A stretch of DNA of 39,962 nucleotides from Rhodospirillales bacterium (lineage in GTDB: Bacteria > Pseudomonadota > Alphaproteobacteria > BOG-932 > Roseiterribacteraceae). The position numbers and the translations under genes are program-made. Where the stretch lies: contig JAQGIF010000391.1 of NCBI GenBank assembly GCA_028291345.1, positions 1-39,962 on the forward strand, read 5' to 3'. The notes under the pieces are model-generated. The model saw only the letters and a program-made list of their open reading frames with translations. It did not search any database and was not told where the DNA came from. This document shows positions 12,163-34,831 of the stretch, piece after piece; position 1 is the stretch's first letter, and every line of letters starts with the position of its first letter.

Positions 12163-12233
12163 GAAGCCTCCCTATCGTCCGTTTCCCACCGGCGCAAACC
12201 TATGGTCATCCTAAGTGACGGAGTGACCGGCTG

Positions 12234-13832: not shown

Positions 13833-13861
13833 GAAAAGCTTCCTCTCCTTACATCTTTATG

Positions 13862-13935: not shown

Positions 13936-13953
13936 GACGAAATTTATTTTTTC

Positions 13954-14895: not shown

Positions 14896-14901
14896 ACGTT
14901 C

Positions 14902-16065: not shown

Positions 16066-16174
16066 GTCGTTTCCCCGTTTGCCTGTCCGGCTTCCGTCCA
16101 GCATAGTTCGTTAGGCGGCCGGTACGGGCGTAGTAAACCACGCACTGGCACCGGAAGGGCAAGGGGAAAGTTCC
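16066..16174. promoter_or_regulatory. divergent control region, Rieske operon / aldo-keto reductase
   Basis: A 109-nt gap separates the Rieske gene (minus) from the aldo/keto reductase gene (plus) and must hold the promoters of both. No clear -35/-10 pair or operator palindrome was recognised. A strong Shine-Dalgarno (aaggggaaag) serves the plus-strand gene. Confidence 0.4.
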
Positions 16175-20039: not shown

Positions 20040-21383
20040 ATGAGTCAACCGCGTGGCCGGTACTCACTGTTGTTGCTTGTAGTATTGTTCCTTAGCTTGG
20101 CACACGCGGGGCAAGCTCAGACGACATCAGTTACGGCAACGGCCGATGTTCATTTGGGTGTTGCGACCTGCGCCGGCGGTCCCTGCCACGGCGCCGCGTC
20201 GACCGCCAAGAAAAACGGCGTTCTCCAAAACGAATATCTGACCTGGCAAGTCCACGACAAGCACGCCAGGGCCTACTCGGTGCTCGAGGGTGACGTGGGC
20301 AAGCGGATCGCCGCGAACCTCGGAATCGGCCCCGCCACCGAAGCCAAGCAGTGCCTCGACTGCCACGCCGACAATGTCCCGGCCGAGGCGCGCGGCGTGC
20401 AGTTCAAGATTTCCGACGGTGTCGGTTGCGAAGCCTGCCATGGTGGCGCGCAGCGCTGGCTCGGGCCGCACGTGTCCGGCCATGTCGATCATGCCGCGCT
20501 GGTCAAGGATGACGGTCTTTATCCGACCGACCTCCCGGCCGACCGGGCAAAATTGTGCCTCGGCTGCCATCTCGGCGACGAGACGCATGTCATCACCCAT
20601 AAGATCATGGGCGCCGGCCATCCCAGGCTGTCGTTCGAGCTTCAGACCTTTTCGCAGATTCAACCCGCGCATTATGTGATCGACGACATCTATCGCAAGC
20701 GCAAGACGGTCTCGCAGGGTGTCCAGTTCTGGGCGGTCGGCCAGGCCATGGGGCTGGAAAAGCTGGTGTCGGGGATCGCCGCCGACAAGCATCAGGGCAA
20801 CGGCGTGTTCCCCGAGCTGGTGTTCTTCGATTGCCAGGCCTGCCACCACCCGATGAGCAATCTGCGCTGGCAGAAGCGGGCCTCGACCGGCCTCGGACCC
20901 GGCATCCCGCACTTCAACGACGCCAACGCGATCATGCTCCGCACCATCGCCGCCCGGGTCGCGCCGGAGATGAGCAAGTCGCTGGACAGCGACATCCACG
21001 CCCTGCATCTCGCATTGAGCGCCGGCGAGGGCAACCCAGCCGAGATCGCAAAACGGCTGGGCGCGACCGCGCATCAGATCGGCGGTGTGCTGGCCGTGCA
21101 TGACTTCACCAAGGCAGACATGCACGAAATGCTGCTGGCGGTCGCGAAATCCAGCACCAATGGCGACGCCAGCGACTATGCGGCGGCCGAGCAGGTGACG
21201 ATGGCGTTCGCCTCGATCATCTACACGCTGAACAGTGCGGGCGATCTCGACGCGGCGACCTATGCGGCGCTCAAGGGCGGCCTCAACCAGTGCTACGGCG
21301 CGATCCAGAAGGAAGACAGTTACGATCCGGTGAAATTCGCCGCGGCCGCCAAGGCGGTGACGCAGGCGATGCCTTCATCGTGA
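20040..21383 (+). CDS. secreted five-haem cytochrome c (c554-like)
   Basis: This is a 447-residue exported multihaem cytochrome. The start at 20040 (ribosome binding site ggggaag) gives a compact signal peptide, MSQPRGRYS followed by a leucine-rich core and ending GQAQ. An ATG at 20004 with ggagg upstream is an alternative that adds 12 residues. Haem sites are one CX4CH (CAGGPCH, about residue 44) and four CXXCH (CLDCH, CEACH, CLGCH, CQACHH), all before about residue 270. The C-terminal half is helical and haem-free. The opening VHLGVATCAGGPCHGA recalls cytochrome c554-type proteins. It is the first gene of the operon and probably a periplasmic electron carrier or terminal reductase. The haem count is read from motifs; redox role is inferred. 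Confidence 0.85.
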   Translation: MSQPRGRYSLLLLVVLFLSLAHAGQAQTTSVTATADVHLGVATCAGGPCHGAASTAKKNGVLQNEYLTWQVHDKHARAYSVLEGDVGKRIAANLGIGPATEAKQCLDCHADNVPAEARGVQFKISDGVGCEACHGGAQRWLGPHVSGHVDHAALVKDDGLYPTDLPADRAKLCLGCHLGDETHVITHKIMGAGHPRLSFELQTFSQIQPAHYVIDDIYRKRKTVSQGVQFWAVGQAMGLEKLVSGIAADKHQGNGVFPELVFFDCQACHHPMSNLRWQKRASTGLGPGIPHFNDANAIMLRTIAARVAPEMSKSLDSDIHALHLALSAGEGNPAEIAKRLGATAHQIGGVLAVHDFTKADMHEMLLAVAKSSTNGDASDYAAAEQVTMAFASIIYTLNSAGDLDAATYAALKGGLNQCYGAIQKEDSYDPVKFAAAAKAVTQAMPSS

Positions 21384-21426
21384 GGTCCCGCGCAGTGATC
21401 CGATTCTTTGGACAGGCGGGCGCGCA

Positions 21427-23859
21427 ATGACCGAGCATTACAAGGTCGCGATCATCGGCTCGGGGCCCGGGGGCCTGTCGGCGGCGATTACCGCCGCGGA
21501 TCAAGGACTGTCGCATGTGCTGCTGGAGCGGACGAACCACCTGTCCGATACCATCTTCAAGTACCAGAAGGGCAAGAAGGTCATGGCGCATCCGATGCGC
21601 CTGCCGCTTCAGGGAAGCATGCCGTTCGAGGAAGGCTTCCGCGAAGGTATATTGGACAACTGGAACGTGGCCGCCGAGAAGTCCGGCGCCAATATCCGGC
21701 TGAATGCCGAAGTTAAGAAAATGTCCGGGGAGCGCGGCAGCTTTCAGCTGACGCTGCCCGGCAATGAAATCATCACAGCCGATGAAGTCATCCTGGCGAT
21801 CGGCCTGCAAGGCAATCTGCGCAAGGTGCCGGTGCCCGGTGCCGACCGGGAATGGGTGCAATACCAGCTCGACGATCCCGATGCCTATCAGAACGAGCGC
21901 ATCGCGATCATCGGCGCCGGCGATGCCGGTATCGAAAACGCGATCGCGCTGGCGTCGCATAACGAAGTCAGCATCATCAACCGCCAGCCCGACTTCTCGC
22001 GCGCCAAGCCGGGCAACGTTGCGGCGATCGAAAAGGCCATCCGGTCCGGCCAGATCAGGGCCTATGCCAATTCCGCCCCGGCCCGCATCGACGATAAGGC
22101 GCTGATCCTCGACACCGCTGAAGGCCAATCGATCGTTCCGGTGGATCGCATCATCGCCCGGCTGGGCGCAATCCCACCCCGCAAATTCCTCGAAGAGGCC
22201 GGGATCAAGTTCCCCAGCGACGACCCTGCGGCGGTGCCGGAACTGTCCGAAACCTATGAATGCAACGTCCCCGGGCTGTATATCATCGGCGCGCTGGCTG
22301 GCTTCACGCTGATCAAGCAGGCCGTCAACCAGGGGCACGAGATCATCCGCCGGATGGCCGGCGATCCGATCGCGCCGGCGGACGAAGACCTGCTACAGCA
22401 GCGGTTCGAGTCTGCGTTCCAAGGCGCGTCGGTCAACGCGGTGCTGACCTATCTCAGGGAGCATGTTCCCATCCTGGCCGGCTTGACCATGCTGCAGCTG
22501 CGCGAGGTGATGCTGGAAAGCACGATCGCGCGTTTCAGAGCCGGCGACGTCGTGTTCAAGCGCGGCGATTATACCAACTCGCTGTGGAATATCGCCGAAG
22601 GCACCGCCCACGTGCTGATCAATGAGGCGCGGCCGGACATGGCGGTGCGGATCGGCGAGGCGGAATTTTTCGGCGAGATCGGCCTGATCTCGGGCCGCCG
22701 CCGTGGCGCGACCGTGGTCGCGGGCGAGGCATCGGTCATGGTCGAAGTTCCGCGCCGGTCTATGCGGCGCCTGCAAAGCTCGATCAAGGCGATCAAGGTC
22801 GAGCTCGACCGCGTCGCGATGCGCCGGATCATCCATACCGCACTGGCGCGCGACCGGCCGATCAGCGAGATCGAGGACATCATCGCCGGCGCGGAACTGA
22901 AGCGCTACAAAGCTTTCGAGACGATCTGCGCCGAAGGCGAATTGGTCGATGCGCTCTACATCATGCGCACCGGCTCGGCGACGGTGTCGCGTATCGATAA
23001 CGGTCGCGAGGTCGCGCTGAACTTCATCGCCGCCGGCAGCCTGTTCGGCGAACGCGGATTGCTCGAAGACGAGGCCAAGCGCGCGGCGACGATCCGCGCC
23101 ACGGTGGCGTCAGAGGCTGTGCGCATCGACGCGTCGGTCATCCGCGGCAGCATGGAGCGGATGCCCGAACTCAGGGGGATTTTCGAAAAGGCGGTGCAGT
23201 CACAGCTGGACCAGACGGTCCACAGCGCCCTGGCCCGCGCCGGCCAGCGCGTCGGCGGAACGGACGGTTCCGCTGTCACCGCCTTCCTGGTCAATCAAGG
23301 CGTCGGCGAAGCGACCAACGCTTTCATCATCGACGAGGGGCTATGCACACGCTGCGGCAACTGCGAATCGGCCTGCGCCTCGACCCATGACGGCATCAGC
23401 CGCGTCAATCGCGACGCTGGTCCGCGCGCGATGTCAGTTCTACTGCCCGTGGCCTGCCGCCATTGCGAGAACCCGCACTGTATGACCGATTGCCCGGTCG
23501 ATGCGATCACGCGCGCGCCGACAGGCGAGGTTTTCATCAATCAGAACACCTGCATCGGCTGCAGCAACTGCGCGAATAACTGCCCCTACGGCGTGATCAA
23601 CATGGTCGATCCGACCTCGGGCCATAAAGAGCATCAAAACTGGCTGACATGGCTGCTCGACAGCGTCGGCCTGCCGACGCCGGCGCCCAAGCCGCACGAT
23701 CATAACGCCCCGCATGCGACGAAGGCCGTCAAATGCGATTTGTGCAAGGATACCGGCGGCTCGCCGGCTTGCGTCGCGGCCTGCCCGACGGGCGCTGCGA
23801 TCCGCGTTGCGCCCGAGACCTATATGGCATGGGTCCGTGACGGTCGGGGGCGGTCATAA
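21427..23859 (+). CDS. FAD/NAD(P) reductase - double cNMP-binding - 4x[4Fe-4S] fusion protein
   Basis: This is an 810-residue soluble protein with no signal peptide, so cytosolic. Residues 1 to about 335 form a two-dinucleotide-fold flavoprotein resembling ferredoxin-NADP or thioredoxin reductase: FAD motif GSGPGG, NAD(P) motif GAGDAG, and VPGLYIIGALAG near the end. The CxxC disulfide of thioredoxin reductase is absent. Two cyclic-nucleotide-binding domains follow, with cassettes FGEIGLISGRRRGAT (about 417) and FGERGLLEDEAKRAAT (about 539). The C-terminal part is a DmsB/NrfC-type ferredoxin with sixteen cysteines in four groups (640-650, 677-689, 709-719, 770-786), enough for four [4Fe-4S] clusters. 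It probably moves electrons between NAD(P)H and the membrane cytochrome b encoded next, gated by cAMP or cGMP. The second cassette keeps the Arg-Ala pair; the first is less canonical. Confidence 0.9.
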   Translation: MTEHYKVAIIGSGPGGLSAAITAADQGLSHVLLERTNHLSDTIFKYQKGKKVMAHPMRLPLQGSMPFEEGFREGILDNWNVAAEKSGANIRLNAEVKKMSGERGSFQLTLPGNEIITADEVILAIGLQGNLRKVPVPGADREWVQYQLDDPDAYQNERIAIIGAGDAGIENAIALASHNEVSIINRQPDFSRAKPGNVAAIEKAIRSGQIRAYANSAPARIDDKALILDTAEGQSIVPVDRIIARLGAIPPRKFLEEAGIKFPSDDPAAVPELSETYECNVPGLYIIGALAGFTLIKQAVNQGHEIIRRMAGDPIAPADEDLLQQRFESAFQGASVNAVLTYLREHVPILAGLTMLQLREVMLESTIARFRAGDVVFKRGDYTNSLWNIAEGTAHVLINEARPDMAVRIGEAEFFGEIGLISGRRRGATVVAGEASVMVEVPRRSMRRLQSSIKAIKVELDRVAMRRIIHTALARDRPISEIEDIIAGAELKRYKAFETICAEGELVDALYIMRTGSATVSRIDNGREVALNFIAAGSLFGERGLLEDEAKRAATIRATVASEAVRIDASVIRGSMERMPELRGIFEKAVQSQLDQTVHSALARAGQRVGGTDGSAVTAFLVNQGVGEATNAFIIDEGLCTRCGNCESACASTHDGISRVNRDAGPRAMSVLLPVACRHCENPHCMTDCPVDAITRAPTGEVFINQNTCIGCSNCANNCPYGVINMVDPTSGHKEHQNWLTWLLDSVGLPTPAPKPHDHNAPHATKAVKCDLCKDTGGSPACVAACPTGAAIRVAPETYMAWVRDGRGRS

Positions 23860-23900
23860 CCCCCCCCGCTGAACCCACCTCGATCCATCGCTCCTTCCTG

Positions 23901-24719
23901 ATGTGGAAGGACGCCTATTATGGCAAGGTCGCGCTCATCCTGTCGGTGGCGGCGATCTTTTTTTACCTGATCGATCATCCCAGCGGCGTGCCCAATGGTG
24001 GATCGTGGCTGGGCTATACTTACGGCACGGTCGGCTTTGGGCTGATCGGCTGGCTCGCCTGGTTCGGCATCCGCCGCCGCCGCTATGGCGGGCAGGGGCC
24101 GCTCGAGGGCTGGATGTCGGCGCATGTCTATCTTGGGATAGCGCTGATCGTCGTCGCGACCCTGCATACCGGCTTCCGCTTTCACTGGAACGTCCACACG
24201 CTGGCCTATGTCCTGATGGCGATCGTCATCGTCAGCGGCATTTTCGGGGCATACACCTTCCTGCGCTATCCGGCGATGATGACGGCCAACCGCGCCGGCT
24301 CGACCTTGAAGACAATGTCGGCCGAGCTGGCGGGACTCGATCAAAGCTGCCGCGATCTAGCACTGACCTTCGACGACGAAACTGCGGCCCTGGTGGTCGC
24401 CGCGACGCAGGATTTCGGCGGGCGCTTCACCTTCCGTGAAATCTTTCTCGGGCGCAGCGTCAATCTGGTTGAGGGTGCGACCGGCGGCGCGATCGCGCGG
24501 TTGAGGGACCAGGTTGGCGGCGTTGGTAATGCCCAGCCGGCCGAAGTCCTGCCGCTGGTCCAGAACCTCACGAAGCGTGCGACGGTGGTGGTTAAGATGC
24601 GCCGCGACTGGCGCTATCGGGCTCAGATGCTGCTGTGGCGCGCCATCCACGTTCCGTTGACTATCGCTCTGGTGCTCGCTCTTACGATCCACGTCTTCGC
24701 GGTCTTTTACTACCGGTAA
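23901..24719 (+). CDS. five-helix di-haem b-type membrane cytochrome (putative)
   Basis: This is a 272-residue inner-membrane protein. Predicted helices are about 8-25, 39-57, 74-94, 97-119 and 248-270, with RRRR at 58-61 marking the cytoplasmic side. Helix 3 has His75 and His89 and helix 5 has His250 and His264. Both pairs are exactly 14 apart, the spacing of the haem ligands in cytochromes b, and the predicted topology puts one His pair near each membrane face. A cytoplasmic loop of about 125 residues lies between helices 4 and 5 and may dock the iron-sulfur protein encoded just upstream. No named family was recognised. The ATG at 23901 has no good ribosome binding site, and the frame is open to 23841, so the true start could lie slightly upstream at a rare codon. 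Confidence 0.75.
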   Translation: MWKDAYYGKVALILSVAAIFFYLIDHPSGVPNGGSWLGYTYGTVGFGLIGWLAWFGIRRRRYGGQGPLEGWMSAHVYLGIALIVVATLHTGFRFHWNVHTLAYVLMAIVIVSGIFGAYTFLRYPAMMTANRAGSTLKTMSAELAGLDQSCRDLALTFDDETAALVVAATQDFGGRFTFREIFLGRSVNLVEGATGGAIARLRDQVGGVGNAQPAEVLPLVQNLTKRATVVVKMRRDWRYRAQMLLWRAIHVPLTIALVLALTIHVFAVFYYR

Positions 24720-24722
24720 CCT

Positions 24723-26450
24723 ATGTCGACGCTTCTCCGCTTCATACCGCGCGTCGGCGCATCGATTGATCCAAGACAGGATCGATTGGTCGCAGAGCCA
24801 GAGATCACGGTCGGCCGCGCGCCCGATTGCAGCCTGCAGCTGAAGCGCGACGGCTTGCGCTATCACCACGCCGTGCTACGCGAGGACCGGGCGGATATCG
24901 TCGTCGAGGCGCTGCCGGGGGCGACGCTGAAAAAGGGCACCGCCGAGGTTGCGCGCGCACGCCTGTCGATCGGCGACTCCGTGCGAATCGGCCCGTTCAT
25001 CTTCACCGCCGTGGCACCCGACGAGACGAGCGGTGCCGACCATGTCGTCACCATCACCGCCGCCGAAGAAAGCGCGTTCGACGAGGTCGCCCAGGCCAAA
25101 TCCTATATGGGCCGCTTCGAGGTCAGCCTGCCGAACATCCGCCTGTTCGCTTTCGTGACCTCGGTGCTTGTGTTCGTGCTGTTCTTCATCGTCCCGCTCA
25201 TTTTCGGGCCGCTTAAGCCCGGCGACAGCTGGACGACCAAGGTGGGTCGAGCCGAGGCCTCGCTCGAAGTTCATACCGGGTTGTTCCATTCGGCCCGGCT
25301 CTGGAATGTCGGCGAGATCTCCGGCGCGCATAAGGCTTTCGGCACGAATTGCGCGAGCTGTCACGAAAGCCCGTTCGTGCCGGTCCGCTCCAGCTCCTGC
25401 CTGTCCTGCCATCAGTCGATCGGACAGCATGCCGATCCGCGTCTGGCGCCGAGCGCGGACCTGAACAATGAACGCTGCGAGTCCTGTCATCACGAACATA
25501 AGGGTACGACGCTTGCCACTAAGGACGACCAGTCCGACTGCGTGGGTTGCCACAGCGCACTGAAGAGCGTCATGCCCGCGACGAAGCTGCGCGACGTCAG
25601 CGACTTCGGCAGCGACCACCCCGAATTCTCGCCGTCGCTGGTGCAGGATGCGAGTGCGCATACGATGGCCCGCTTCCCGCTGGACGACAAGAACGCCGTC
25701 GATAACAGCCACCTCAAATTCACCCACATGACGCATTTGAAGCTCGACAAGGTGAAGAAGGCGGGTGCCGAGAAAGGCTCGACCTGCGCGACGTGCCACG
25801 AGGAAGCGCCCGGCGGCATGGTGTTCAAGCCCGTTCGCTACGACAAGAACTGCGCCGATTGCCACCAGCTGCAGTTCGAGCCCAAGCATCCGGAGTGGCG
25901 GCTGCCGCACGGCCATCCCGAGGATGTCGCCAACCGGCTGAGAGGTTATTATTCCGAGGCGGCACTGCGCAACGAGATCTTCCCTGCGCCCAGGAGCGAC
26001 ATCTTCGTCAAGCCGGGCGCGGACCTGCCGCCGCCGCCCCCGACCGGCGCGGAGATGGTTTCGGCCCAGACAGCCAACGCCATGATGTCGTCGATCGCCC
26101 GCAGCGCCTGCGGGGAATGCCATGTCACCGCCCCACCGGAACCGGGTGCCGATCCTTCGGAATGGAAGGTGTTGCCCGTCTATGTACCGGACCGGTTCCT
26201 GCCCAAGGCCCAGTTCCGGCATGACAAGCACACCACCATGACCTGCCAGGGCTGCCATGCCGCCGAGACCAGCGATGGCGGTGTCGCCGCCCTGCTGCCC
26301 GGTATCGAGACTTGCAAGGGCTGCCATGCCGGCGAAAGCGGCGCAGCGCAGCGCATCGCATCGCGCTGCGTGTCCTGCCACGTGTTCCACAATCCCGACC
26401 ATCCGATCGCCGGGCTTCGCGCTGCCGCCGCGACGGAATCTGCGAAATAG
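24723..26450 (+). CDS. FHA domain - transmembrane - decahaem cytochrome c
   Basis: This 575-residue protein starts 3 nt after the preceding stop. Residues about 20-100 form a forkhead-associated (FHA) domain: ITVGRAPDCSLQL, then YHHAVLRED, with the conserved Gly-Arg and a His motif for phospho-threonine recognition. One transmembrane helix follows (about 139-162, LFAFVTSVLVFVLFFIVPLIFG). After it lie ten CXXCH motifs between about residues 210 and 550: CASCH, CLSCH, CESCHH, CVGCH, CATCH, CADCH, CGECH, CQGCH, CKGCH and CVSCH. With the N-terminus inside, FHA is cytosolic and the haems are periplasmic. The cytochrome part resembles class III / c7-like modules. It probably takes electrons from the di-haem cytochrome b and passes them across the periplasm. 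Coupling a cytosolic phospho-peptide reader to a multihaem wire is very unusual. Confidence 0.9.
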   Translation: MSTLLRFIPRVGASIDPRQDRLVAEPEITVGRAPDCSLQLKRDGLRYHHAVLREDRADIVVEALPGATLKKGTAEVARARLSIGDSVRIGPFIFTAVAPDETSGADHVVTITAAEESAFDEVAQAKSYMGRFEVSLPNIRLFAFVTSVLVFVLFFIVPLIFGPLKPGDSWTTKVGRAEASLEVHTGLFHSARLWNVGEISGAHKAFGTNCASCHESPFVPVRSSSCLSCHQSIGQHADPRLAPSADLNNERCESCHHEHKGTTLATKDDQSDCVGCHSALKSVMPATKLRDVSDFGSDHPEFSPSLVQDASAHTMARFPLDDKNAVDNSHLKFTHMTHLKLDKVKKAGAEKGSTCATCHEEAPGGMVFKPVRYDKNCADCHQLQFEPKHPEWRLPHGHPEDVANRLRGYYSEAALRNEIFPAPRSDIFVKPGADLPPPPPTGAEMVSAQTANAMMSSIARSACGECHVTAPPEPGADPSEWKVLPVYVPDRFLPKAQFRHDKHTTMTCQGCHAAETSDGGVAALLPGIETCKGCHAGESGAAQRIASRCVSCHVFHNPDHPIAGLRAAAATESAK

Positions 26451-26457
26451 CCTTCCC

Positions 26458-29274
26458 ATGCACATCACGACATCACAAGCCGTCACCTCATGGTCCCGGA
26501 TGACCGTCGCTGTGAAACGATGCCGCCTCGGCGGAATCGCAGTGGCGGCTCTGTTAGGGGGCGGGATTACGACCTCGGCATTCGCCCAGGCCACGGCATC
26601 GTTGGTGTCCGCGGTGTTGCCGAGCAGCCGGTCGGTCCAGATCGGCCAGACCGCGACCGCCTTCGCAACGATCATCAATGCCGGCACGGCGACGGGCACC
26701 GCCTGCTCGATTGCGCCGTCGACGACGATCCCGGCGAATTTCGCCTATCAGACGACGAGTTCGGCGACGAACGCGCCGACCGGGTCGGCCAATACACCGA
26801 TCGATATCGCTCCGGGTGCCTCGCAGAGCTTCATCATCTCGCTGACCCCGACCGCAGCGATTCCGCCCATATCGGTCGGGTTTTCCTTTAGCTGCACGAA
26901 CGCCGCGAGCGCGCCGCTGACGACCGGCGTCAACGACCTGTTATTGTCGGGCTCGGCCACCCCGGTGCCGGGTATGGTCGCGATGTCGGCGACGGCGAGC
27001 AACGACGGAATCGTCCACATTCCTGGCAACACGGGGACAGGGGCATTTGCGATTGCATCGGTGAATGTCGGGGCGACAGGCGACCTGACGGTTTCGGCCG
27101 ATACCGGCTCGGCCGGCATCCCGCTCGCTTTGACCTTGTGTCAGACCATGCCCTCCACCGGCGCCTGTCTCCAATCGCCTAGCGCGTCGGTGCATCCGAC
27201 GATCAATGCCGGCGCGACTCCGACTTTCTCGGTTTTTGCCGTTGGATCGGGTGCCATTCCGTTTGCACCAGCGACCAGCCGCGTGTTCGTGCGCTTTACC
27301 GACTCAGGCGGCGCAGTGCGCGGTTCGACCAGCGTCGCCGTGGTCACCGACAATCCGACAACGACCGGCTCGGCATCGATTTTGCTGCCCGGCCCTAGCG
27401 TCCTGGGAACGGCCCTGACACAGGCGGATGTCGGAAAGATCATCAGTCAGGTCGTCCAGGAGGCCAAGGCGCGCGGGAAACCCGCGACGATCGCGATCGT
27501 GGACCGGCTGGGCGCGGTGCTGGCGGTTTATGCCATGAACGGCGCGCCCGCCACCTTCCAGATCGAGAGCAATCCCAACGGACCGAACGCGACCCAGCTT
27601 ATCGACGGGTTGAGCGGTGTCGCAAATTTGGGCGCCGTTCCGCTAGTTCCAGCCACCTTGGAGGCGATCGCCAAGGCTGTGACAGGCGCGTATCTTTCGA
27701 CGTCGCACGGCAATGCCTTCACGACGCGGACGGCAAGCCAGATCGTCCAGGACCATTTTAATCCGGGAACGATGGGCGCGCCCTCGGGTCCGCTGTTCGG
27801 TGTGCAGTTCAGTTCGTTGCCCTGTTCGGACCTTAATGTCCGCTACTCTCCGACTGCCGATCTCAGTTCGACGACGCGCGGGCCGCATCGCTCGCCGCTC
27901 GGCCTCGCCGGCGATCCGGGCGGCTTTCCGCTCTATAAGAACGGCGAACTGGTCGGCGGCATCGGCGTAAAGGCGGAGGGGCCGTATCGGGTAGACGAGT
28001 ATATCTACGACAACGATCACTCGACCGACGAGATCGAGGCGCTGGCCGGCACGATCGGCTTCGACACGCCGGCGGCGATCCGCGCCGACACGATAAACGC
28101 GGGCGGGATCACGCTGCGCTATTCCGACGCCACGCCGAGCGACTTCGTCACCACCCCGGCATCGGCGCCCGCCTATGCATCGCTTCCCGTTGGCACGGGA
28201 TCGCTGCTCAGCGTGTCGGGCTATTACAGCAGCGCCGACGGCTTGCGGGCGGGGAGCCCTTACGGATCATCGGCGTCGGGCATCGTCCAGGATTTCTCCG
28301 GCACGGTCAGCACCTCCGTTCCGCCCTATCTGCTTGTCGATGGCGCCAGCATGGTCCGCTATCCGGCGGTCGCCGGCGCCGGCCCCAGCGCGATGACCCA
28401 GGCAGAGGCGCTGCAGGTGTTGAAGAGCGCCTATGCCAGCGCCATCCAGACCCGCGCGCAAATCCGCAACCCGCCTGGATCGGTTCTCGCAGTCACGATC
28501 AGCGTGGTTGACGTCTATGGCACGCCTGTGGGCGTCGCGACTCTTCCCGATGCGCCGGTGTTCGGCATTGATGTGTCACTGCAAAAGGCGCGCACCGCCG
28601 TATTCATGTCGAGCGCCAATGGCGACGCGGCCCTGAAATCGACTCCCGCCAACCCGGCGGGCGGGCCGAGCGTCGGGAAATTCTCCGATGCGGCGGCGGC
28701 GTTCTTCGGCAGGCCGGTCTTTTCGGGCGGGTACGCCTGGGGGGCGCGCGCCATCGGCAATATCTCGCGCGACAGCTATCCCGATGGCATCGATACGACG
28801 CCCAATGGCCCGCTGTCGCTGGCGAAGAACTTGTCCACGCCGTTTTCCGTTGGCCTTCAGCTCGACCTCATCCTCGGTAACATCAAATCGCATCTGGTAT
28901 CCGTGGTTACCGGCGATCCGACGGCGGATACGCCGCCATTCTGTACCGCGTTGCCGGCTCCGCCCGGCAGCCCGACGGGCAAGCCGGTCATGGCCAACGG
29001 CGAACAGATTTTCCCGGGCGGCTTTCCGATCTACCGCAACGGCGTGTTGATCGGCGGTGTAGGAATATCGGGCGATGGCGTCGACCAGGACGACATGACC
29101 GCGTTCCTGGGCATCTATAATGCCGGGCAGGCCCTGGGCACCGGCCTCGGTGAAGCGCCGCCTGCCATCCGCGCCAGCACGCTCTATGGCAACGGCGCCG
29201 CCCCGCATTATGTGAATTGCCCGTTCGCGCCCTATGTCGGCAGCAACTCGCAAAATCTATGCGCCGGCAAATGA
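26458..29274 (+). CDS. secreted protein with two GlcG/HbpS-like domains
   Basis: This is a 938-residue exported protein beginning 7 nt after the preceding stop. An ATG at 26500 would give a shorter, more typical signal peptide (MTVAVKRCRLGGIAVAALLGGG...AFAQ). The N-terminal third is Thr/Ala/Ser-rich beta-sandwich material like bacterial adhesin or choice-of-anchor repeats. Two GlcG-like (PF03928) domains follow. The first runs from TQADVGKIISQVVQEA and includes IAIVDRLGAVLAVYAMNGAP. The second runs from MTQAEALQVLKSAY and includes ISVVDVYGTPVGVATLPDAP. Each is interrupted by long loops and closes with FPLYKNGELVGGIGV or FPIYRNGVLIGGVGI. GlcG/HbpS relatives bind haem or small ligands. No CXXCH motif is present. 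Stop and next start overlap as ATGA. It may be a periplasmic or surface haem- or ligand-binding partner of the cytochromes. Confidence 0.8.
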   Translation: MHITTSQAVTSWSRMTVAVKRCRLGGIAVAALLGGGITTSAFAQATASLVSAVLPSSRSVQIGQTATAFATIINAGTATGTACSIAPSTTIPANFAYQTTSSATNAPTGSANTPIDIAPGASQSFIISLTPTAAIPPISVGFSFSCTNAASAPLTTGVNDLLLSGSATPVPGMVAMSATASNDGIVHIPGNTGTGAFAIASVNVGATGDLTVSADTGSAGIPLALTLCQTMPSTGACLQSPSASVHPTINAGATPTFSVFAVGSGAIPFAPATSRVFVRFTDSGGAVRGSTSVAVVTDNPTTTGSASILLPGPSVLGTALTQADVGKIISQVVQEAKARGKPATIAIVDRLGAVLAVYAMNGAPATFQIESNPNGPNATQLIDGLSGVANLGAVPLVPATLEAIAKAVTGAYLSTSHGNAFTTRTASQIVQDHFNPGTMGAPSGPLFGVQFSSLPCSDLNVRYSPTADLSSTTRGPHRSPLGLAGDPGGFPLYKNGELVGGIGVKAEGPYRVDEYIYDNDHSTDEIEALAGTIGFDTPAAIRADTINAGGITLRYSDATPSDFVTTPASAPAYASLPVGTGSLLSVSGYYSSADGLRAGSPYGSSASGIVQDFSGTVSTSVPPYLLVDGASMVRYPAVAGAGPSAMTQAEALQVLKSAYASAIQTRAQIRNPPGSVLAVTISVVDVYGTPVGVATLPDAPVFGIDVSLQKARTAVFMSSANGDAALKSTPANPAGGPSVGKFSDAAAAFFGRPVFSGGYAWGARAIGNISRDSYPDGIDTTPNGPLSLAKNLSTPFSVGLQLDLILGNIKSHLVSVVTGDPTADTPPFCTALPAPPGSPTGKPVMANGEQIFPGGFPIYRNGVLIGGVGISGDGVDQDDMTAFLGIYNAGQALGTGLGEAPPAIRASTLYGNGAAPHYVNCPFAPYVGSNSQNLCAGK

Positions 29275-31004
29275 GGCGGACTCTTCATTTCGCCGCCCTG
29301 TCGGTCCTCGCGCTCGCCATAGCCGGGACCGCGGTTGCTCAGGACGAGTTCCAGAAGCCTGGTGCGGCGATCCAGGGGCCGGTGCCCGACCAGAATCCGG
29401 GCGCATTGCCCGCGCCGTCGCCCGACCTCGAATATCGCCAGGTGCCGATCCCGGACCGCAATCGCATCATGGATGCGCTGGGCGTTCCGGATCAGGCGCT
29501 CAACCCCTATCAGCAAAGCACGCTGAAAGGCGACCGCCCGGTCTATGGCGAAGACTGGTATGTCGCAGTCAGCTCGGTCCTGGACACGCTTTACGAGCCG
29601 CGGACCGTCCCGGTTCCGACCAATGTGGTGTCGACCAATCGCCAGCTGACCAACGACCAGTTCGGCCGGCCCCGGCAGACTTTCTTCGCCGAGACGCTGA
29701 TCCCGACCTTCTCGATCATCAAGGGCGACACGACTTTCAAGCCACCGGAACTCGAATTCACGGTGACGCCTGCGGTCAAGTTCACGCATTTGGGCGTCGA
29801 CGAGCTGGGCATTGCCGATGTGAATCCGGCCAAGGGGCGGAATCGCAATTCGGGCTTTATCGGGTTCCAGGAAGCGTTCATCGATTATCACCTCCGGAAT
29901 GTTTCAGACCGGTACGATTTCGATTCGGTCCGCGTCGGCATCCAGCCGATGAATGCGGATTTCCGCGGTTTCCTGTTCCAGGACCAGCAGCTCGGTGTGC
30001 GCCTGTTCGGCGATCGGGCCAACAACCGGTTCCAGTACAACCTCGCTTATTTCCGGCGGATCGAGAAAGACACCAACAGCGGGTTCAACGATCTGAGCAA
30101 GCCGCTGCGCCGCGATAATATCCTGCTGGCCAACCTGTTCGTGCAGGATCTGCCGGTGACAGGGTTCACCACCGAGTTCAGCGTCGTTGAGAACTGGAAC
30201 CGCGAAGCGGCATTCCATTACGACTCCAACGGCTTCCAGGTTCGGCCCGCCGTGTTCGGCTTCGACGCGCCGCATAAATACAACGTCACCTATTTCGGGC
30301 TGAATGGCGACGGCCATTTCGGCCGGATCAACCTGACCCATTCCTTTTACTATGCGCTGGGCAACGACAGCTTAAACGAGATCAGCGGCAAGAAGGCCAA
30401 TATCAGGGCGTTCTTCCTGGCGCTGGAACCGTCGATAGACTTCGACTGGCTGCGCATCCGCGGTTCGTTCCTCTATTCCAGCGGCGACGACAACCCTGGA
30501 AGCGGCACCGAGACCGGGTTCGACGCCATTACCGAAAATCCGCAATTCGCCGGCGCCGATTCCAGCTATTGGATACGCGAGGGCATACCGTTCATCGGCG
30601 GTGGCGGCGTCGGCCTGACCGGACCCAACAGCCTGATACCGGCGCTGCGCTCGTCGAAAGACGAGGGCCAGTCCAACTTCATCAATCCGGGCCTCCTGCT
30701 GCTTGGTATTGGCGCCGATATCGACCTGCTGCCGGAATTGCGGATCGCACTGAACGCGAACCATCTCAGCTTCAACAATACCAAGATATTGGAGATCCTG
30801 CGCCAGCAAGGGCATATCCGCGACGATATCGGCTGGGACTTATCGGCGACCGCGAACTGGCGTCCCTTCGACACCCAGAACATGATTTTTCGCGTTTCCG
30901 GGGCTGTATTGGTTCCCGGAGATGGCTTTAAGGATCTGTTGTCCTCTCAATCCGAGGACAAGCTGTACTATTCCGTCGTTCTCAACCTCATCCTAGCGTA
31001 CTGA
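29271..31004 (+). CDS. outer-membrane beta-barrel protein
   Basis: This is a 577-residue outer-membrane protein. The start at 29271 overlaps the upstream stop as ATGA and gives a clean signal peptide (MRRTLHFAALSVLALAIAGTAVAQ). A short Pro-rich region (PGALPAPSPDLEYRQVPIPDRNR) is followed by alternating amphipathic strands with aromatic girdles, for example YNLAYFRR, NVTYFGLNGDG, GRINLTHSFYYALG and DLSATANWRP. The sequence ends in LYYSVVLNLILAY, close to the C-terminal aromatic signature of BAM substrates. There are no haem motifs. The number of strands cannot be counted reliably by eye (probably 18 or more). The position between a secreted ligand-binding protein and a decahaem cytochrome suggests a porin sheath, as in porin-cytochrome complexes, but no sequence similarity to MtrB was recognised. 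Confidence 0.82.
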   Translation: MRRTLHFAALSVLALAIAGTAVAQDEFQKPGAAIQGPVPDQNPGALPAPSPDLEYRQVPIPDRNRIMDALGVPDQALNPYQQSTLKGDRPVYGEDWYVAVSSVLDTLYEPRTVPVPTNVVSTNRQLTNDQFGRPRQTFFAETLIPTFSIIKGDTTFKPPELEFTVTPAVKFTHLGVDELGIADVNPAKGRNRNSGFIGFQEAFIDYHLRNVSDRYDFDSVRVGIQPMNADFRGFLFQDQQLGVRLFGDRANNRFQYNLAYFRRIEKDTNSGFNDLSKPLRRDNILLANLFVQDLPVTGFTTEFSVVENWNREAAFHYDSNGFQVRPAVFGFDAPHKYNVTYFGLNGDGHFGRINLTHSFYYALGNDSLNEISGKKANIRAFFLALEPSIDFDWLRIRGSFLYSSGDDNPGSGTETGFDAITENPQFAGADSSYWIREGIPFIGGGGVGLTGPNSLIPALRSSKDEGQSNFINPGLLLLGIGADIDLLPELRIALNANHLSFNNTKILEILRQQGHIRDDIGWDLSATANWRPFDTQNMIFRVSGAVLVPGDGFKDLLSSQSEDKLYYSVVLNLILAY

Positions 31005-31009
31005 GGCTT

Positions 31010-34000
31010 ATGCTCCGCATCGGCATATCCATCGTCCTTCTCTGCCTTGGCCTCGCGGCACCGCTGCGCGCGGACCCGACGTCGGCCGCACCACGGTTTC
31101 AGACGGCTGAGGAGATGCGGGCGAAAAGCGGCGGCTGCCTCAGCTGCCACACCGCCTCGGATGCGCCGACGATGCATGAGAATAAGGCGATCATGCTGGG
31201 CTGTGCCGATTGCCATGGCGGCAATCCGAATGTCAGCCGGCCGGCGAACGCGGCCGTGTCGTTCGGGCCGAGTCAGTCGTCGGCGCCGGAAGGCCTGGCG
31301 GGACATGCGCCCGCCGTCACGCGCAGCACCGACCCCGCCTATAAGACGGCGATGGACGCGGCTCATGTGCAGCCGCGCAATCCAGAGGCCTGGAACTGGC
31401 CGGTCAGCGCAAAGCCTGAGCGCAGCTACACGGCGCTCAATCATGAGAGCCCGGAATTCATCCGCTTCCTGAACCCATCGGATTACCGCGTCGTGCATTA
31501 TGCCTGCGGCGCCTGCCACGATGCCGAGGTCAAGGCAACGCAGCGGTCGCTGATGTCCACCGGCGCGATGCTGTGGGGCGGAGCGTCCTATAATAACGGC
31601 ATCCTTCCGTTCAAGAATTACATCGTCGGCGAGGCCTATACCGAAGAGGGCCATGCCGGGCAGATATTCAATCCGGTCGAGCCTACGGCCGAGATGAAGC
31701 ATCATGGCGTGCTGTCGTCTCTCCTGCCCCTGCCGCCATGGGAAGTGGTGAAGCCCGCCGACGTCTTCCGGGTGTTCGAACGCGGTGGCCGGGTGATCAA
31801 CACGCAATTCCCCGATATCGGCGACCCGAATTCCAGCGGCTCAAGCCAGAAGATGGACGAGCCCGGCCGGCCCGACCTGCATGCGGGCAATCGCGACCTA
31901 GGAACCGGCAGCCGCATCGCCGTCCCGGTCATCAATATCACCAAGACACGCTTGAACGACCCGACCATGTGGTTCCTCGGCACCAATGACCAGCCAGGCG
32001 ACTATCGCAGTTCGGGTTGCGCCGGCTGCCACGTGATCTATTCGAACGACAAGGACCCACTGCATTCCGGGCCTTATGCGATATTCGGTCATGACGGCAC
32101 GAGCCGGTCGATCGACCCGACGATCCCGCACGGCGAATCCGGCCATCCGCTACGCCATGTATTCACGCGGGCGATCCCGACCAGCCAGTGCATGGTCTGC
32201 CACATGCACCAGCCTAATATCTTCGTGAATTCCTTCATGGGCTACACCATGTGGGATTATGAATCCGACGCGCCCAGCATGTGGCCGAAGGAGCAGCAAT
32301 ATCCGACCGATTCGGAGATTCGCGCCGTCAACGACCGCAATCCCGAAGGCGCGGCGCCCCGTGGCAAATGGTCGGATGTCGAATTCCTGTCCAAGGTCGC
32401 GGACCTGAACCCGACCCTGAAGAATACGCAGTTCGCCGATTACCACGGCCATGGCTGGAATTTCCGCGCGATCTTCAAAGCCGACCGCAAGGGCAATCTG
32501 CTCGATGCCAAGGGCGCCATGGTCAGCCAGGACGACCCCGACAAGTTCCACAAGGCCGTGCATCTCGCCTCTATCCATATGGAAAAAGGCATGCAGTGCA
32601 TGGACTGCCACTTCTCGCAGGACGCGCACAGCAACGGCTTCCTGTATGGCGAGGCTTCAGCCGCGATCGAAATTCAATGCGTTGATTGTCATGGCACGGC
32701 CGATAAATTCCCAACCCTGAAAAGTTCGGGTCCCGCCGCCCCGCCGGGTGGCACCGACCTGTCGGCAATCCGCAACCAGGACGGGTCGCTGCGGTTCGAA
32801 TGGCGCGGCAATACGCTGATCCAGCGGTCCGCGGTCACGCCGGGTCTGGAATGGAAGGTCAGCCTCGTGAAGAACTCGGTCGATCCGACCTTCCCAGGCT
32901 ATAATGCCAAGGCGGCGCGGGCCAAGCTGATGTCGGCAGATACGTCGCTGAAATGGGGCCTGGGCGTGGCGACGGAAAATCGCGCCCACCAGGACAAGAA
33001 CATGATGTGCATCAGCTGCCACACATCATGGACGACAAGTTGCTCGGGTTGTCACCTGCCGATCGAGGCGAACTGGAAGACGGATCGTCACCATTTCGAC
33101 GGCGGGGAAAGCCGCAACTTCGCGACCTATAATCCGCAGGTGTCGCGCGACGACATGTTCTTCCTGGGCAAGAACTCGACCGTTAAGGGCAACATCATTG
33201 CGCCGGTGCGCTCATCCTCGGCGCTGATCCTGTCATCCACCAACATCAACCGCGAGAAGATCTATATCCAGCAGCCGCCGATCGCGGCCAGCGGCTACTC
33301 GTCCCAAGCCTTCGCCCCGCATTACCCGCATACCGAGCGCACGGTCGAAACCAAGACCTGCGAAGATTGTCACGTCTCCGCCAAGGACGACAACAACGCG
33401 ATCATGGCGCAGCTCCTACTGCTCGGGACCAACTTCGTCAATTTCGTCGGCTATAATGCCTGGCTGGGCGAGGAAAGCGGCGTCGAAGCTGTAAAGGTTA
33501 CGGAGTGGGATGAGCCGCAAGCCGTGATCGGCAGCTATCTGGATCGCTACGCCTATCCCGACTGGTTCAAGAAGCACCAGGAAAACGGCCAGGAACTGCA
33601 GGAAGCCCATCATCATTCGGGCGATGTCACCCGCTGCATCCAGATGCGCGGCGAATATCTTTACACGGCGGCCGGCGCGGACGGCTTCCGCGTTTACGAC
33701 ATCGCCTCGATCGCGAATAAGGGCTATTCGGAGCGGATCGTGACCGCGCCGTTCTCGGCGCTGGGACACGATACGCAGGTCGATACCAAGGATGCGACTT
33801 GCGTCGCACTGCCGACGAACCAGTCGATTGCCCCGCTGCGCAACCAGGGCGATCTGATGCGGGTCGATAATCAGGAACAGCCGTTCCACCCGATCTATCA
33901 CTACGCCTTCATCACCGACTCCAAGGAAGGGCTAATCGCGGTCGACATCGATTCGCTAACCGACGGCGAGCCACGCAACAACTTCTTGAAGCGGGCGATG

Positions 34001-34831
34001 ACCTGGAACGACGGGGGCATATTGAACGGCGCCCGTCACATCACCATCGCCGGTTCGGTGTTCTATATCGCGGCGGATAAGGGGATCGTGGTCCTCGATA
34101 TGAACGATCCGCTGAGTCCGAAGGTGATGTCGGTGATCGACCTGCCGGCCGCAACGTCCACCGCGGTACAGTTCCGTTATCTGTTCGTCACCGATAGCAG
34201 CGGCCTGCGTGTGGTCGATATCACTCATCCCGACCATCCGGAAATCATCCAGGGCGCATCCGCGCCGCTCCGGAATGCCCATCGCGTCTATGTCGCCCGC
34301 ACCTTCGCCTATGTCGCGGATGGGGCGGACGGTCTGGCGATTATCGATGTCGAGCAGCCGCGCCAGCCGAAGCTGTATCAGATGTTCACCGCCGCGGGAC
34401 GCATCAAGGACGCCAACGACGTCATCGTCGCCACGACAAACGCGTCGCTCTATGCCTATGTCGCCGACGGGGCCGAAGGGCTGAAGGTCATCCAGCTGAC
34501 CTCGCCGGCATCGCAGCCGAATTTCTACGGCTACAGCCCCGATCCCAAGCCTGAACTGATTGCCTGGCGCAAAACCAGCAGCCCGGCGCTCTCCTTGTCA
34601 AAAGGACTGGACCGCGACCGCGCCGTCGACGAAACCGGCAACCAGATCGCCATCTTCGGCCGGTTGGGGTCGCGGCCCTTTACCCTGCCGGAAATGCAGA
34701 AGCTCTATCTCAACCGCAAGGGCTTCCTGTGGACGGTGGATAATACCGGTAGGCCGGGCGATTTCCTTCCGGCTGCGCCGGGTCCCCGGAATACGGTCGG
34801 CCCGCTCTTCCAAAAGCCCGGAACGCAGTAA
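31010..34831 (+). CDS. decahaem cytochrome c with C-terminal LVIVD beta-propeller
   Basis: This is a 1,273-residue exported cytochrome. A signal peptide (MLRIGISIVLLCLGLAAPLRA) leads into a haem region of about 750 residues with ten CXXCH motifs: CLSCH, CADCH, CGACH, CAGCH, CMVCH, CMDCH, CVDCH, CISCH, CSGCH and CEDCH (residue 43 to about 788). From about residue 865 to 1170 come at least five LVIVD-type repeats such as YLYTAAGADGFRVYDI, FYIAADKGIVVLDM, YLFVTDSSGLRVVDI, FAYVADGADGLAIIDV and YAYVADGAEGLKVIQL, which form a beta-propeller. The gene starts 5 nt after the barrel gene and ends the operon. The propeller may mediate surface or barrel docking, or substrate binding. Whether it faces the periplasm or the exterior cannot be told from sequence. 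Confidence 0.9.
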   Translation: MLRIGISIVLLCLGLAAPLRADPTSAAPRFQTAEEMRAKSGGCLSCHTASDAPTMHENKAIMLGCADCHGGNPNVSRPANAAVSFGPSQSSAPEGLAGHAPAVTRSTDPAYKTAMDAAHVQPRNPEAWNWPVSAKPERSYTALNHESPEFIRFLNPSDYRVVHYACGACHDAEVKATQRSLMSTGAMLWGGASYNNGILPFKNYIVGEAYTEEGHAGQIFNPVEPTAEMKHHGVLSSLLPLPPWEVVKPADVFRVFERGGRVINTQFPDIGDPNSSGSSQKMDEPGRPDLHAGNRDLGTGSRIAVPVINITKTRLNDPTMWFLGTNDQPGDYRSSGCAGCHVIYSNDKDPLHSGPYAIFGHDGTSRSIDPTIPHGESGHPLRHVFTRAIPTSQCMVCHMHQPNIFVNSFMGYTMWDYESDAPSMWPKEQQYPTDSEIRAVNDRNPEGAAPRGKWSDVEFLSKVADLNPTLKNTQFADYHGHGWNFRAIFKADRKGNLLDAKGAMVSQDDPDKFHKAVHLASIHMEKGMQCMDCHFSQDAHSNGFLYGEASAAIEIQCVDCHGTADKFPTLKSSGPAAPPGGTDLSAIRNQDGSLRFEWRGNTLIQRSAVTPGLEWKVSLVKNSVDPTFPGYNAKAARAKLMSADTSLKWGLGVATENRAHQDKNMMCISCHTSWTTSCSGCHLPIEANWKTDRHHFDGGESRNFATYNPQVSRDDMFFLGKNSTVKGNIIAPVRSSSALILSSTNINREKIYIQQPPIAASGYSSQAFAPHYPHTERTVETKTCEDCHVSAKDDNNAIMAQLLLLGTNFVNFVGYNAWLGEESGVEAVKVTEWDEPQAVIGSYLDRYAYPDWFKKHQENGQELQEAHHHSGDVTRCIQMRGEYLYTAAGADGFRVYDIASIANKGYSERIVTAPFSALGHDTQVDTKDATCVALPTNQSIAPLRNQGDLMRVDNQEQPFHPIYHYAFITDSKEGLIAVDIDSLTDGEPRNNFLKRAMTWNDGGILNGARHITIAGSVFYIAADKGIVVLDMNDPLSPKVMSVIDLPAATSTAVQFRYLFVTDSSGLRVVDITHPDHPEIIQGASAPLRNAHRVYVARTFAYVADGADGLAIIDVEQPRQPKLYQMFTAAGRIKDANDVIVATTNASLYAYVADGAEGLKVIQLTSPASQPNFYGYSPDPKPELIAWRKTSSPALSLSKGLDRDRAVDETGNQIAIFGRLGSRPFTLPEMQKLYLNRKGFLWTVDNTGRPGDFLPAAPGPRNTVGPLFQKPGTQ

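What the first reader, a model, noticed from the sequence alone, without database searches (positions are those of the whole stretch)
20040..34831. Seven-gene trans-envelope electron-transfer operon without a recognised counterpart
Seen: seven same-strand genes with gaps of 43, 41, 3, 7, -4 and 5 nt encode a five-haem cytochrome, a cytosolic FAD/FeS protein, a two-haem-b-like membrane protein, a membrane-anchored decahaem cytochrome, a secreted GlcG-domain protein, an outer-membrane barrel and a decahaem cytochrome with a propeller. Known: porin-cytochrome conduits (MtrCAB, PCC) combine multihaem cytochromes with a barrel. Inferred: this is a complete path from NAD(P)H to the cell surface, or the reverse, built from different parts and placed in a presumably aerobic sphingomonad. 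It does not match Mtr, Pcc, Cyc2, Nrf, Hao or DMSO-reductase operons that I know.
Basis: partly seen in the sequence, partly recalled or inferred. Interest (0 to 1): 0.92.

Follow-up and report, generated by a model that had tools for sequence, protein, structure and literature searches.

The report
Regulated electron conduit across cell envelope
Seven neighbouring genes appear to build a wire that carries electrons from the cell's interior fuel carrier NAD(P)H towards or through the outer membrane of oxygen-breathing bacteria; relatives occur in many other bacteria, but its purpose is unknown and it looks like a new version of an already described kind of wire.

Summary
In detail: seven tightly packed genes at 20040-34831 with the stated gaps, haem counts (5, 10, 10) and domains. 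"No counterpart" is wrong. A genome scan found 246 stretches encoding relatives of g7, and 56 of 87 neighbourhoods examined hold all seven families. In a 398-genome sample three families tested (g2, g3, g7) co-occur almost perfectly. The inner-membrane core (a protein with two cyclic-nucleotide-binding domains and four Fe-S sites, a di-haem b membrane protein, an anchored decahaem cytochrome) is homologous to loci that fit "PCC4", a porin-cytochrome cluster named in 2017. The outer parts differ: an AlgE-like 18-strand barrel, a GlcG protein and a very conserved decahaem-propeller protein. New points: a TrxR-like FAD domain fused to the Fe-S protein, invariant cyclic-nucleotide-cassette arginines, a cyclic-nucleotide-phosphodiesterase-like gene behind the core in seven of seven genomes of one family and on a Sphingobium plasmid, and haem-copper oxidase in all 19 host genomes tested. 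Best reading: a cyclic-nucleotide-gated, NAD(P)H-driven trans-envelope electron conduit, probably outward. A new variant of a known kind. Direction, substrate, gating and passage through the barrel are unproven.

The parts
20040..21383 (+). g1: secreted pentahaem cytochrome (c554-like), outer module
   Evidence: Pfam PF13435 1.7e-09; 5 haem motifs in 65 of 65 closed homologous ORFs
21427..23859 (+). g2: cytosolic FAD/NAD(P) reductase (Pyr_redox_2, YpdA/TrxR-like, no CxxC in the FAD part) + two cyclic-nucleotide-binding domains + four [4Fe-4S]-type sites
   Evidence: 16 cluster cysteines and phosphate-cassette arginines R426 and R552 invariant in 69 aligned sequences; no CxxC in the first 320 aa in 68 of 68
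23901..24719 (+). g3: inner-membrane di-haem b protein, two WX3HX13H motifs and SGXXG (IMP class of PCC3/PCC4)
   Evidence: H75/H89 and H250/H264 invariant in 66 sequences; two motifs in 64 of 65 and SGxxG in 61 of 65 homologues
24723..26450 (+). g4: degenerate FHA-like cytosolic domain, one transmembrane helix (read from the sequence), periplasmic decahaem cytochrome c7/c3
   Evidence: 10 haems in 64 of 65; 10 invariant histidines outside the motifs; FHA reported in 9 of 20 members
26458..29274 (+). g5: secreted protein with GlcG/HbpS-like domains
   Evidence: PF03928 1.4e-23, three stretches
29271..31004 (+). g6: outer-membrane beta-barrel, 18 long strands predicted, AlgE-like fold, proline-rich N-terminal linker
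   Evidence: AlphaFold mean pLDDT 82.6; VIA Z 27.8, rmsd 2.8, 359 aligned to AlgE 3rbh_D
31010..34831 (+). g7: secreted decahaem domain followed by an LVIVD beta-propeller
   Evidence: 10 haems in 80 of 81; LVIVD 3.1e-17; propeller VIA Z 28.6, rmsd 2.3, 275 aligned to 1l0q_A

Best explanation
The operon encodes a porin-cytochrome-type trans-envelope electron conduit whose inner-membrane core is shared with PCC4-like clusters. NAD(P)H, probably NADPH, reduces the FAD domain of g2. Electrons pass along four [4Fe-4S] clusters to the two b haems of g3, which carry them across the inner membrane. They then pass to the anchored decahaem g4, the periplasmic pentahaem g1, and the g6-g7 outer-membrane unit (18-strand barrel plus decahaem-propeller), with the GlcG protein g5 as accessory. 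Binding of a cyclic nucleotide to the two regulatory domains of g2 opens or closes the path. Flow is more likely outward (disposal of reducing power or reduction of an external or periplasmic acceptor) than inward, and the hosts respire oxygen. Shown by sequence: domains, cofactor ligands, co-occurrence, modularity, the g2-g3 fusion and homology to PCC4-like cores. Inferred: electron order, NADPH as donor, cyclic-nucleotide gating, outward direction, and the exit route at the outer membrane.
For: Ligands are invariant: 16 Fe-S cysteines and both cNMP-cassette arginines in g2, four haem-b histidines in g3, ten haem sites with ten extra histidines in g4. g2 and g3 are one open frame in two genomes of one genus. 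g2 (E<=1e-60) and g3 (E<=1e-68) fall in the same 15 of 398 genomes, and all 11 genomes with g7 are among them (chance P 1.7e-27 and 1.6e-18, relatedness not corrected). Three of the seven f13 genomes keep g2-g3-g4 far from g1-g5-g6-g7, so there are two modules. PCC4-like loci L163 and L166 have a CNB-CNB-FeS protein (L166's aligns with g2 at 1e-38) and L166 a homologous IMP and decahaem, but a separate NAD(P)H reductase of another family, FAD_binding_6 + NAD_binding_1 + Fer2. Two different NAD(P)H modules on one core point to pyridine-nucleotide coupling. A SpdA/CpdA-like phosphodiesterase lies directly behind g4 in 7 of 7 f13 genomes and on plasmid pMSHV. All 19 host genomes tested have a haem-copper oxidase match over the Pfam cut-off, one marginally.
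Against: No direct evidence of electron flow, direction, substrate or cyclic-nucleotide binding. The 18-strand barrel may be too narrow for an MtrA-like wire: estimated C-alpha radius about 16 A against 23 A for 26 strands (textbook formula), so surface delivery is doubtful. g7 is unusually conserved for a wire. The two phosphodiesterases scanned are below the curated cut-offs (139.5 of 400 bits at best), and no such gene was found near the operon in the window or in the loci outside f13 and pMSHV except L130, where it lies about 4.9 kb from g4. The models printed for PCC3/PCC4 draw flow inward to the quinone pool.
Confidence: 0.5

Rival explanations
1. The terminal reaction is periplasmic. 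g6 is a selective channel that lets a soluble substrate through the outer membrane and g7 is an enzyme that reduces or oxidises it, fed by g1 and g4; there is no wire to the surface.
For: g6 folds like the alginate exporter AlgE and OprD-type substrate channels. g7 has the highest median pairwise identity of the seven (64.8%, against 30.8-53.9%) and 327 of 1273 positions at 98% or more in 81 sequences, more like an enzyme than a wire. g6 and g7 identities correlate best (0.73; next g1-g7 0.68).
Against: The loci were picked by g7, which inflates its conservation. No catalytic haem was identified and the haem part of the g7 model is of low confidence.
Confidence: 0.3
2. The conduit runs inward: an external electron donor (Fe(II), Mn(II), a reduced organic compound) is oxidised by g7, and electrons reach the inner membrane and are used to make NAD(P)H or feed respiration, as drawn for PCC3/PCC4.
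For: PMC5566968 models PCC3/PCC4 inward and lists metal oxidisers among the hosts. The window's genome has form I RuBisCO with cbbX, so it may fix CO2.
Against: Of 19 host genomes only the window's own has a form I RuBisCO match over the cut-off (five others have weaker matches, best 159 bits in G096, not identified further) and none has a form II match over the cut-off; the same-genus genome has no match in either. Moving electrons to NAD(P)+ is uphill and against the membrane potential (general bioenergetics, not tested).
Confidence: 0.17
3. A haem or iron acquisition or sensing device: GlcG/HbpS and the cytochromes reduce or handle external haem or Fe(III), working like an extended ferric reductase/NOX.
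For: HbpS-like domains in g5; g3 has the HX13H arrangement that PMC5566968 compares with ferric reductases and NOX; one of 24 g3 sequences weakly matches PF01794.
Against: Twenty-five c-type haems are costly for iron uptake (judgement). Most neighbouring genes were not annotated, so a link to iron uptake was not tested.
Confidence: 0.08

Closest known systems
PCC4 (He et al. 2017, PMC5566968; sections 15-18 read) as represented by loci L158, L163, L166, L169, which fit its description
   Same: Fe-S protein in front of an IMP with two WX3HX13H motifs, then a decahaem cytochrome (4 of 4 loci); two CNB stretches in the three Fe-S proteins scanned; homology of L166's Fe-S protein, IMP and decahaem to g2, g3 and g4; an NAD(P)H-type flavoprotein in L163 and L166
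   Different: Flavin domain is of another family (Pyr_redox_2 against FAD_binding_6/NAD_binding_1/Fer2) and fused to the Fe-S protein; no tetrahaem; FHA-like N-terminus on the decahaem; barrel not detectably homologous to two candidate porins; adds GlcG and decahaem-propeller proteins; L166's pentahaem does not convincingly match g1
PCC3 (same paper) as represented by L159, L160, L161
   Same: IMP of L159 is homologous to g3 (hhalign 98.5%)
   Different: PCC3-like cytochromes have 21-35 haems in these loci (one further protein in L161 is cut by the contig end); here 10 at most
Porin-cytochrome 'group 1' in PMC13264449 (11 clusters: large decahaem next to a ~20-strand porin, ferredoxin-NADP reductase nearby in 7 of 11; section 18 and passages read)
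   Same: Probably the same or a sister operon: large decahaem beside an ~18-strand barrel, NAD(P)H reductase nearby
   Different: Sequences and figure not available to me, so identity was not tested; no name or mechanism for it in the section read
Ext cluster of Geobacter (extHIJKLMNOPQS; PMC5877670, passages)
   Same: g7 weakly matches ExtM (65.7 bits); both pair a porin-like protein with multihaem cytochromes
   Different: Far below the ExtM cut-off of 800; by the paper Ext uses rhodanese, Rieske and cytochrome b parts
MtrCAB / MtoAB
   Same: Decahaem cytochromes plus a barrel
   Different: No Pfam family on g6; MtrC/F domain model reaches 26.8 of 30 bits on g1 and the DmsE/MtrA model 30.2 of 192.2 bits on g4

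Membership tests
PCC4 | IMP with five TM helices, two WX3HX13H and SGXXG | tested here: met
   two motifs in 64 of 65, SGxxG in 61 of 65; the number of helices of g3 was not predicted here
PCC4 | Fe-S (pfam13247) gene upstream of the IMP (Subgroup II) | tested here: met
   g2 carries PF13247 (2.9e-13) and precedes g3, but is fused to a FAD domain
PCC4 | three multihaem cytochromes with 4, 5 and 10 haems | tested here: not met
   here 5, 10 and 10
PCC4 | porin of the PCC4 family | tested here: inconclusive
   hhalign found no match of g6 to two ORFs in the likely porin position; one of them has no Pfam match, the other was not scanned
PCC3 | cytochromes with very large haem numbers (medians 34 and 21) and large porin | tested here: not met
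   10 haems at most and 18 predicted strands
MtrCAB/MtoAB | MtrA/DmsE-type decahaem and MtrB-type barrel | tested here: not met
   TIGR03508 30.2 of 192.2 bits on g4; no Pfam family on g6
Geobacter OmbB-OmaB-OmcB | homologous porin and cytochromes | not tested
   no reference sequence was compared
Ext cluster (ExtM) | ExtM equivalog score | tested here: not met
   65.7 bits against 800
Cyclic-nucleotide-binding regulators | intact phosphate-binding cassette (G-E ... R) | tested here: met
   G416, E417, R426 and R552 in 69 of 69; G541 in 68; E542 in 60 (Q in 8, V in 1); ligand binding itself not testable
FHA (phosphothreonine-binding) | conserved FHA residues | tested here: not met
   no position at 95% in the FHA region of g4; 9 of 20 members match PF00498 at E<=0.01
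Ferric reductase/NOX | PF01794 domain | tested here: not met
   1 of 24 g3 sequences, E 0.0066
Porin-cytochrome conduit (general) | cytochrome physically spans the barrel | not testable with these tools
   no complex prediction available; the 18-strand barrel leaves it open

The most novel reading that the evidence does not exclude
A second-messenger-gated electron valve: cyclic nucleotides bound to g2 switch an NADPH-fuelled, 27-haem trans-envelope wire (2 b haems, 25 c haems) on or off in oxygen-respiring bacteria, with a dedicated cyclic-nucleotide phosphodiesterase in sphingomonad-type hosts and a Ser/Thr phosphatase plus a two-FHA protein in gammaproteobacteria tuning it. Alternative flavoprotein modules and outer-membrane ends plug onto one conserved inner-membrane core.
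Probability: 0.35. Interest if true: 0.8.

Novelty: new variant of a known kind. Interest (0 to 1): 0.57.

Why it matters
If true, many aerobic heterotrophs (record titles include Limnobacter, Steroidobacter, Alcanivorax, Parahaliea, Sphingobium; their aerobic habit is recalled) would own an envelope-spanning electron outlet, and extracellular or periplasmic redox chemistry of this sort would not be a specialty of metal-respiring anaerobes. Direct control of a conduit by cyclic nucleotides would be a new way to regulate electron export. The shared core also suggests that PCC4-type conduits, drawn in 2017 as quinone-linked and inward, are NAD(P)H-linked. A cultured host with the genes on a sequenced plasmid (S. 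herbicidovorans pMSHV) makes it testable.

Tried and rejected
Rejected: 'no counterpart', because relatives are abundant and the core matches PCC4-like loci. Rejected: a sphingomonad host for the window. Rejected: a link to autotrophy as the general role, since 1 of 19 hosts has form I RuBisCO over the cut-off and none form II (the 14 control genomes gave no form II match over the cut-off either). Rejected: phosphothreonine binding by the FHA part of g4 as a conserved mechanism. Led nowhere: the AlphaFold model of g7 (mean pLDDT 65.6) gave a confident propeller only; the haem domain is low-confidence and barely tested by the fold searches. PDB sequence search of g7: no match at E<=0.1. Promoter and terminator scans gave counts close to shuffles (6 against 3.7 and 13 against 11.3).

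Papers: ten searches were made; searches listed none. In what I saw no paper names this system. PMC10734462 (passages) lists a ten-haem 'Forkhead-associated protein' in 27 of 87 iron oxidisers, possibly a g4 relative; not tested. PMC7399161: one passage, nothing relevant. The other titles were seen as listings only.

Results against the reading: four of 15 genomes with g2 lack a g7 match at 1e-30 (G096, G123, G239, G240; in G240 the contig ends just behind g6). In the nearest sample g7 was found in 7 of 96 genomes, two of them only by partial or weak matches (G011, G025). Neighbourhoods with 10 kb on both sides but no g1 exist (L074, L094), and L099 lacks g1-g4. One plasmid with g7 (Sphingopyxis indica) has no g2 on it. 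G096 has only a marginal haem-copper oxidase match (33.7 bits, counted over the 34.8 cut-off with its neighbours).

Biases: the 80 best of 246 loci were chosen by g7 similarity; L013 and L020 come from the same contig; the 87 loci include two weak-match neighbourhoods without the operon (L017, L019).
Full report
WHAT IS THERE. Pfam and NCBIfam give: g1, a c554-like cytochrome; g2, Pyr_redox_2 (best NCBIfam model YpdA, 137 of 340 bits) + two cNMP_binding stretches + 4Fe-4S domains; g3, a membrane protein with only a sub-threshold cytochrome b561 match; g4, c7/c3 cytochromes with a weak FHA-like start; g5, HbpS-like (GlcG) domains; g6, nothing; g7, c3/c7/c554 cytochromes and LVIVD repeats.

IT IS A CONSERVED SYSTEM. 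A scan of genome contigs with g7 found 246 stretches encoding relatives, of which the 80 best were kept; record titles are mostly of Proteobacteria, among them Limnobacter, Steroidobacter, Alcanivorax, Parahaliea, Kineobactrum, Silanimonas and Woeseiaceae. Of 87 neighbourhoods examined (L013-L099), 56 hold all seven families; many of the others reach a contig end, which I did not classify one by one, and some with 10 kb on both sides lack g1. Of the 56, the order is g2-3-4-5-6-7-1 in 22, g3-4-5-6-7-1-2 in 17, the first with g1 inverted in 11, the window's order in 4, others 2: mostly rotations of one order. Haem numbers hardly change: g1 has 5 in 65 of 65 closed ORFs, g4 10 in 64 of 65, g7 10 in 80 of 81.

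CO-OCCURRENCE TEST. In a sample of 398 genomes of the phylum, g7 (E<=1e-30) is in 11, g2 (E<=1e-60) in 15 and g3 (E<=1e-68) in the same 15 (the next g3 match is 2e-19). All 11 g7 genomes are among them; chance probabilities are 1.6e-18 (g7 with g2) and 1.7e-27 (g2 with g3), with relatedness not corrected for. The other four families were not run over this sample. In three of the seven genomes of family f13 (G298, G433, G480) g2-g3-g4 lies far from g1-g5-g6-g7 or on another contig, and in G096, G123 and G239 g2-g3-g4 occurs without g7. So there is an inner-membrane module (g2-g3-g4) and an outer module (g1-g5-g6-g7).

COFACTOR ANATOMY. Aligned homologues keep all 16 Fe-S cysteines of g2 (69 sequences), the histidine pairs H75/H89 and H250/H264 of g3 plus H99 (66), ten haem sites and ten further histidines in g4 (66; one motif histidine at 98%), and five haem sites in g1 (66). 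Both cNMP phosphate-cassette arginines of g2 are invariant (R426 and R552, 69 of 69; E417 69, E542 60). No g2 of 68 has a CxxC in its FAD part, so it does not look like a disulphide reductase; conserved R186 and K194 (96% and 100%) behind the second glycine motif suggest NADPH, which is inference. The FHA-like part of g4 has no position conserved at 95%, so phosphothreonine binding is unlikely to be general.

PHYSICAL LINK OF g2 AND g3. In two genomes of one genus (G123, G239) g2 and g3 lie in a single open frame (searches give frames of 1120 and 1125 aa; one search prints the G123 protein uninterrupted). This supports direct transfer from the Fe-S clusters to the b haems.

RELATION TO KNOWN SYSTEMS. 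PMC5566968 (sections 15-18 read) named PCC3 and PCC4; their inner-membrane protein has five helices, two WX3HX13H motifs and SGXXG. g3 has both W-H-H motifs in 64 of 65 and SGxxG in 61 of 65 homologues. The g3 profile finds weaker relatives in 14 more genomes of the sample. I fetched places from 12 of those 14. Four (L158, L163, L166, L169) have a 4-haem cytochrome, a 566-607 aa Fe-S protein, the IMP and a 10-haem cytochrome in the order described for PCC4 Subgroup II, L166 also a 5-haem one; L159, L160 and L161 look like PCC3 with 21-35 haems per protein; in the other five the cytochromes have 7, 7, 8, 10 and 12-24 haems and I did not assign them. The three PCC4-like Fe-S proteins scanned (L163, L166, L169) each have cNMP_binding and Fer4_11 domains and no FAD domain; L166's aligns with g2 residues 364-804 at 1e-38. 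L166's IMP and decahaem are homologous to g3 and g4 by profile (97.7% and 98.6%). Barrel candidates of L166 and L158 and the pentahaem of L166 are not convincingly so. L163 and L166 carry a separate NAD(P)H reductase of another family, FAD_binding_6 + NAD_binding_1 + Fer2. Thus two different NAD(P)H modules serve the same core. The published model draws PCC4 as quinone-linked and inward; this finding argues for a pyridine-nucleotide link.

PMC13264449 (section 18 read; passages) reports 11 clusters with a large decahaem next to a ~20-strand porin, seven with a nearby ferredoxin-NADP reductase; this is probably the same operon, but I could not compare sequences. PMC10734462 (passages) lists a ten-haem forkhead-associated protein in 27 of 87 iron oxidisers, perhaps a g4 relative.

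OUTER MODULE. g6 was modelled well (mean pLDDT 82.6; 18 long strands by my count) and matches AlgE best (Z 27.8, rmsd 2.8, 359 aligned, 12% identity). A standard formula gives a C-alpha radius near 16 A for 18 strands and 23 A for 26, so an MtrA-like wire would hardly fit; this keeps open a channel-plus-periplasmic-enzyme rival. g7's C-terminus is a propeller (model 791-1179, protein about 814-1202; Z 28.6 to 1l0q); its haem domain is unresolved. g7 is the most conserved member (median pairwise identity 64.8% over 51 loci; g6 53.9, g5 50.4, g2 49.9, g3 41.0, g1 38.8, g4 30.8), though loci were chosen by g7. g6 and g7 identities correlate most (0.73).

REGULATION FROM NEIGHBOURS. Directly behind g4, on the same strand, all seven f13 genomes (L100, L101, L105/L131, L108, L127, L128, L129) and Sphingobium herbicidovorans pMSHV (L170) have a metallophosphoesterase. 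Two copies were scanned; their best NCBIfam matches are the cyclic-nucleotide phosphodiesterases SpdA (139.5 and 132.6 of 400 bits) and CpdA (84 and 78 of 225 bits). f13 is unnamed; that it is the sphingomonad family is my inference. In loci mostly labelled gammaproteobacteria a PP2C phosphatase follows the operon in 14 and a two-FHA protein in 16 of 86 loci searched, 60 of which have 5 kb or more downstream of g7. Neither kind was found beside the window's operon.

HOSTS. Of 19 genomes (15 with g7, four with g2 but no g7 match) all have a haem-copper oxidase match over the cut-off, one only marginally; one, the window's own, has form I RuBisCO over the cut-off and none form II. Plasmids of 12 Sphingobium strains carry both g7 and g2; one Sphingopyxis plasmid only g7.

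VERDICT. A real, widespread, mechanistically coherent electron-transfer system that is a new variant of porin-cytochrome conduits of the PCC4 type, not a system without counterpart. Most likely NAD(P)H-driven, cyclic-nucleotide-controlled and outward; direction, acceptor and outer-membrane crossing are open.

Noticed in passing
G000:C287:16906-18300 (locus L137): Form I RuBisCO large subunit with cbbX and class II fructose-bisphosphate aldolase in the window's genome; no match in the same-genus genome G001.
   Followed up: partly
window 4654-7557 (-): 967-aa protein that joins a TonB-receptor plug domain and a C-terminal OmpA domain, a combination that looks unusual to me.
   Followed up: no
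window 11635-16104 (-): Cluster of F420H2-quinone-reductase-like, FAD_binding_2, luciferase-like and KshA-type Rieske oxygenase genes, suggestive of steroid breakdown.
   Followed up: no
L170:473-8626 (S. herbicidovorans pMSHV): Two-partner-secretion pair (FhaC-like and a 2092-aa filamentous exoprotein) directly upstream of g1; related pieces in L104 (both) and L109, L127 (exoprotein only).
   Followed up: partly
L034:5606-6205 and 12 other loci: Small secreted-looking protein without Pfam match lying between g4 and g5 in 13 loci.
   Followed up: partly
L055, L053, L031 upstream of g3: Genes that look like cytochrome c maturation (ccm) parts 9-12 kb from g7 in about 10-14 loci (label by eye, not scanned).
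   Followed up: no
G096:C17:52535-54949: Second copy of g2 without g3 or g4 beside it.
   Followed up: no
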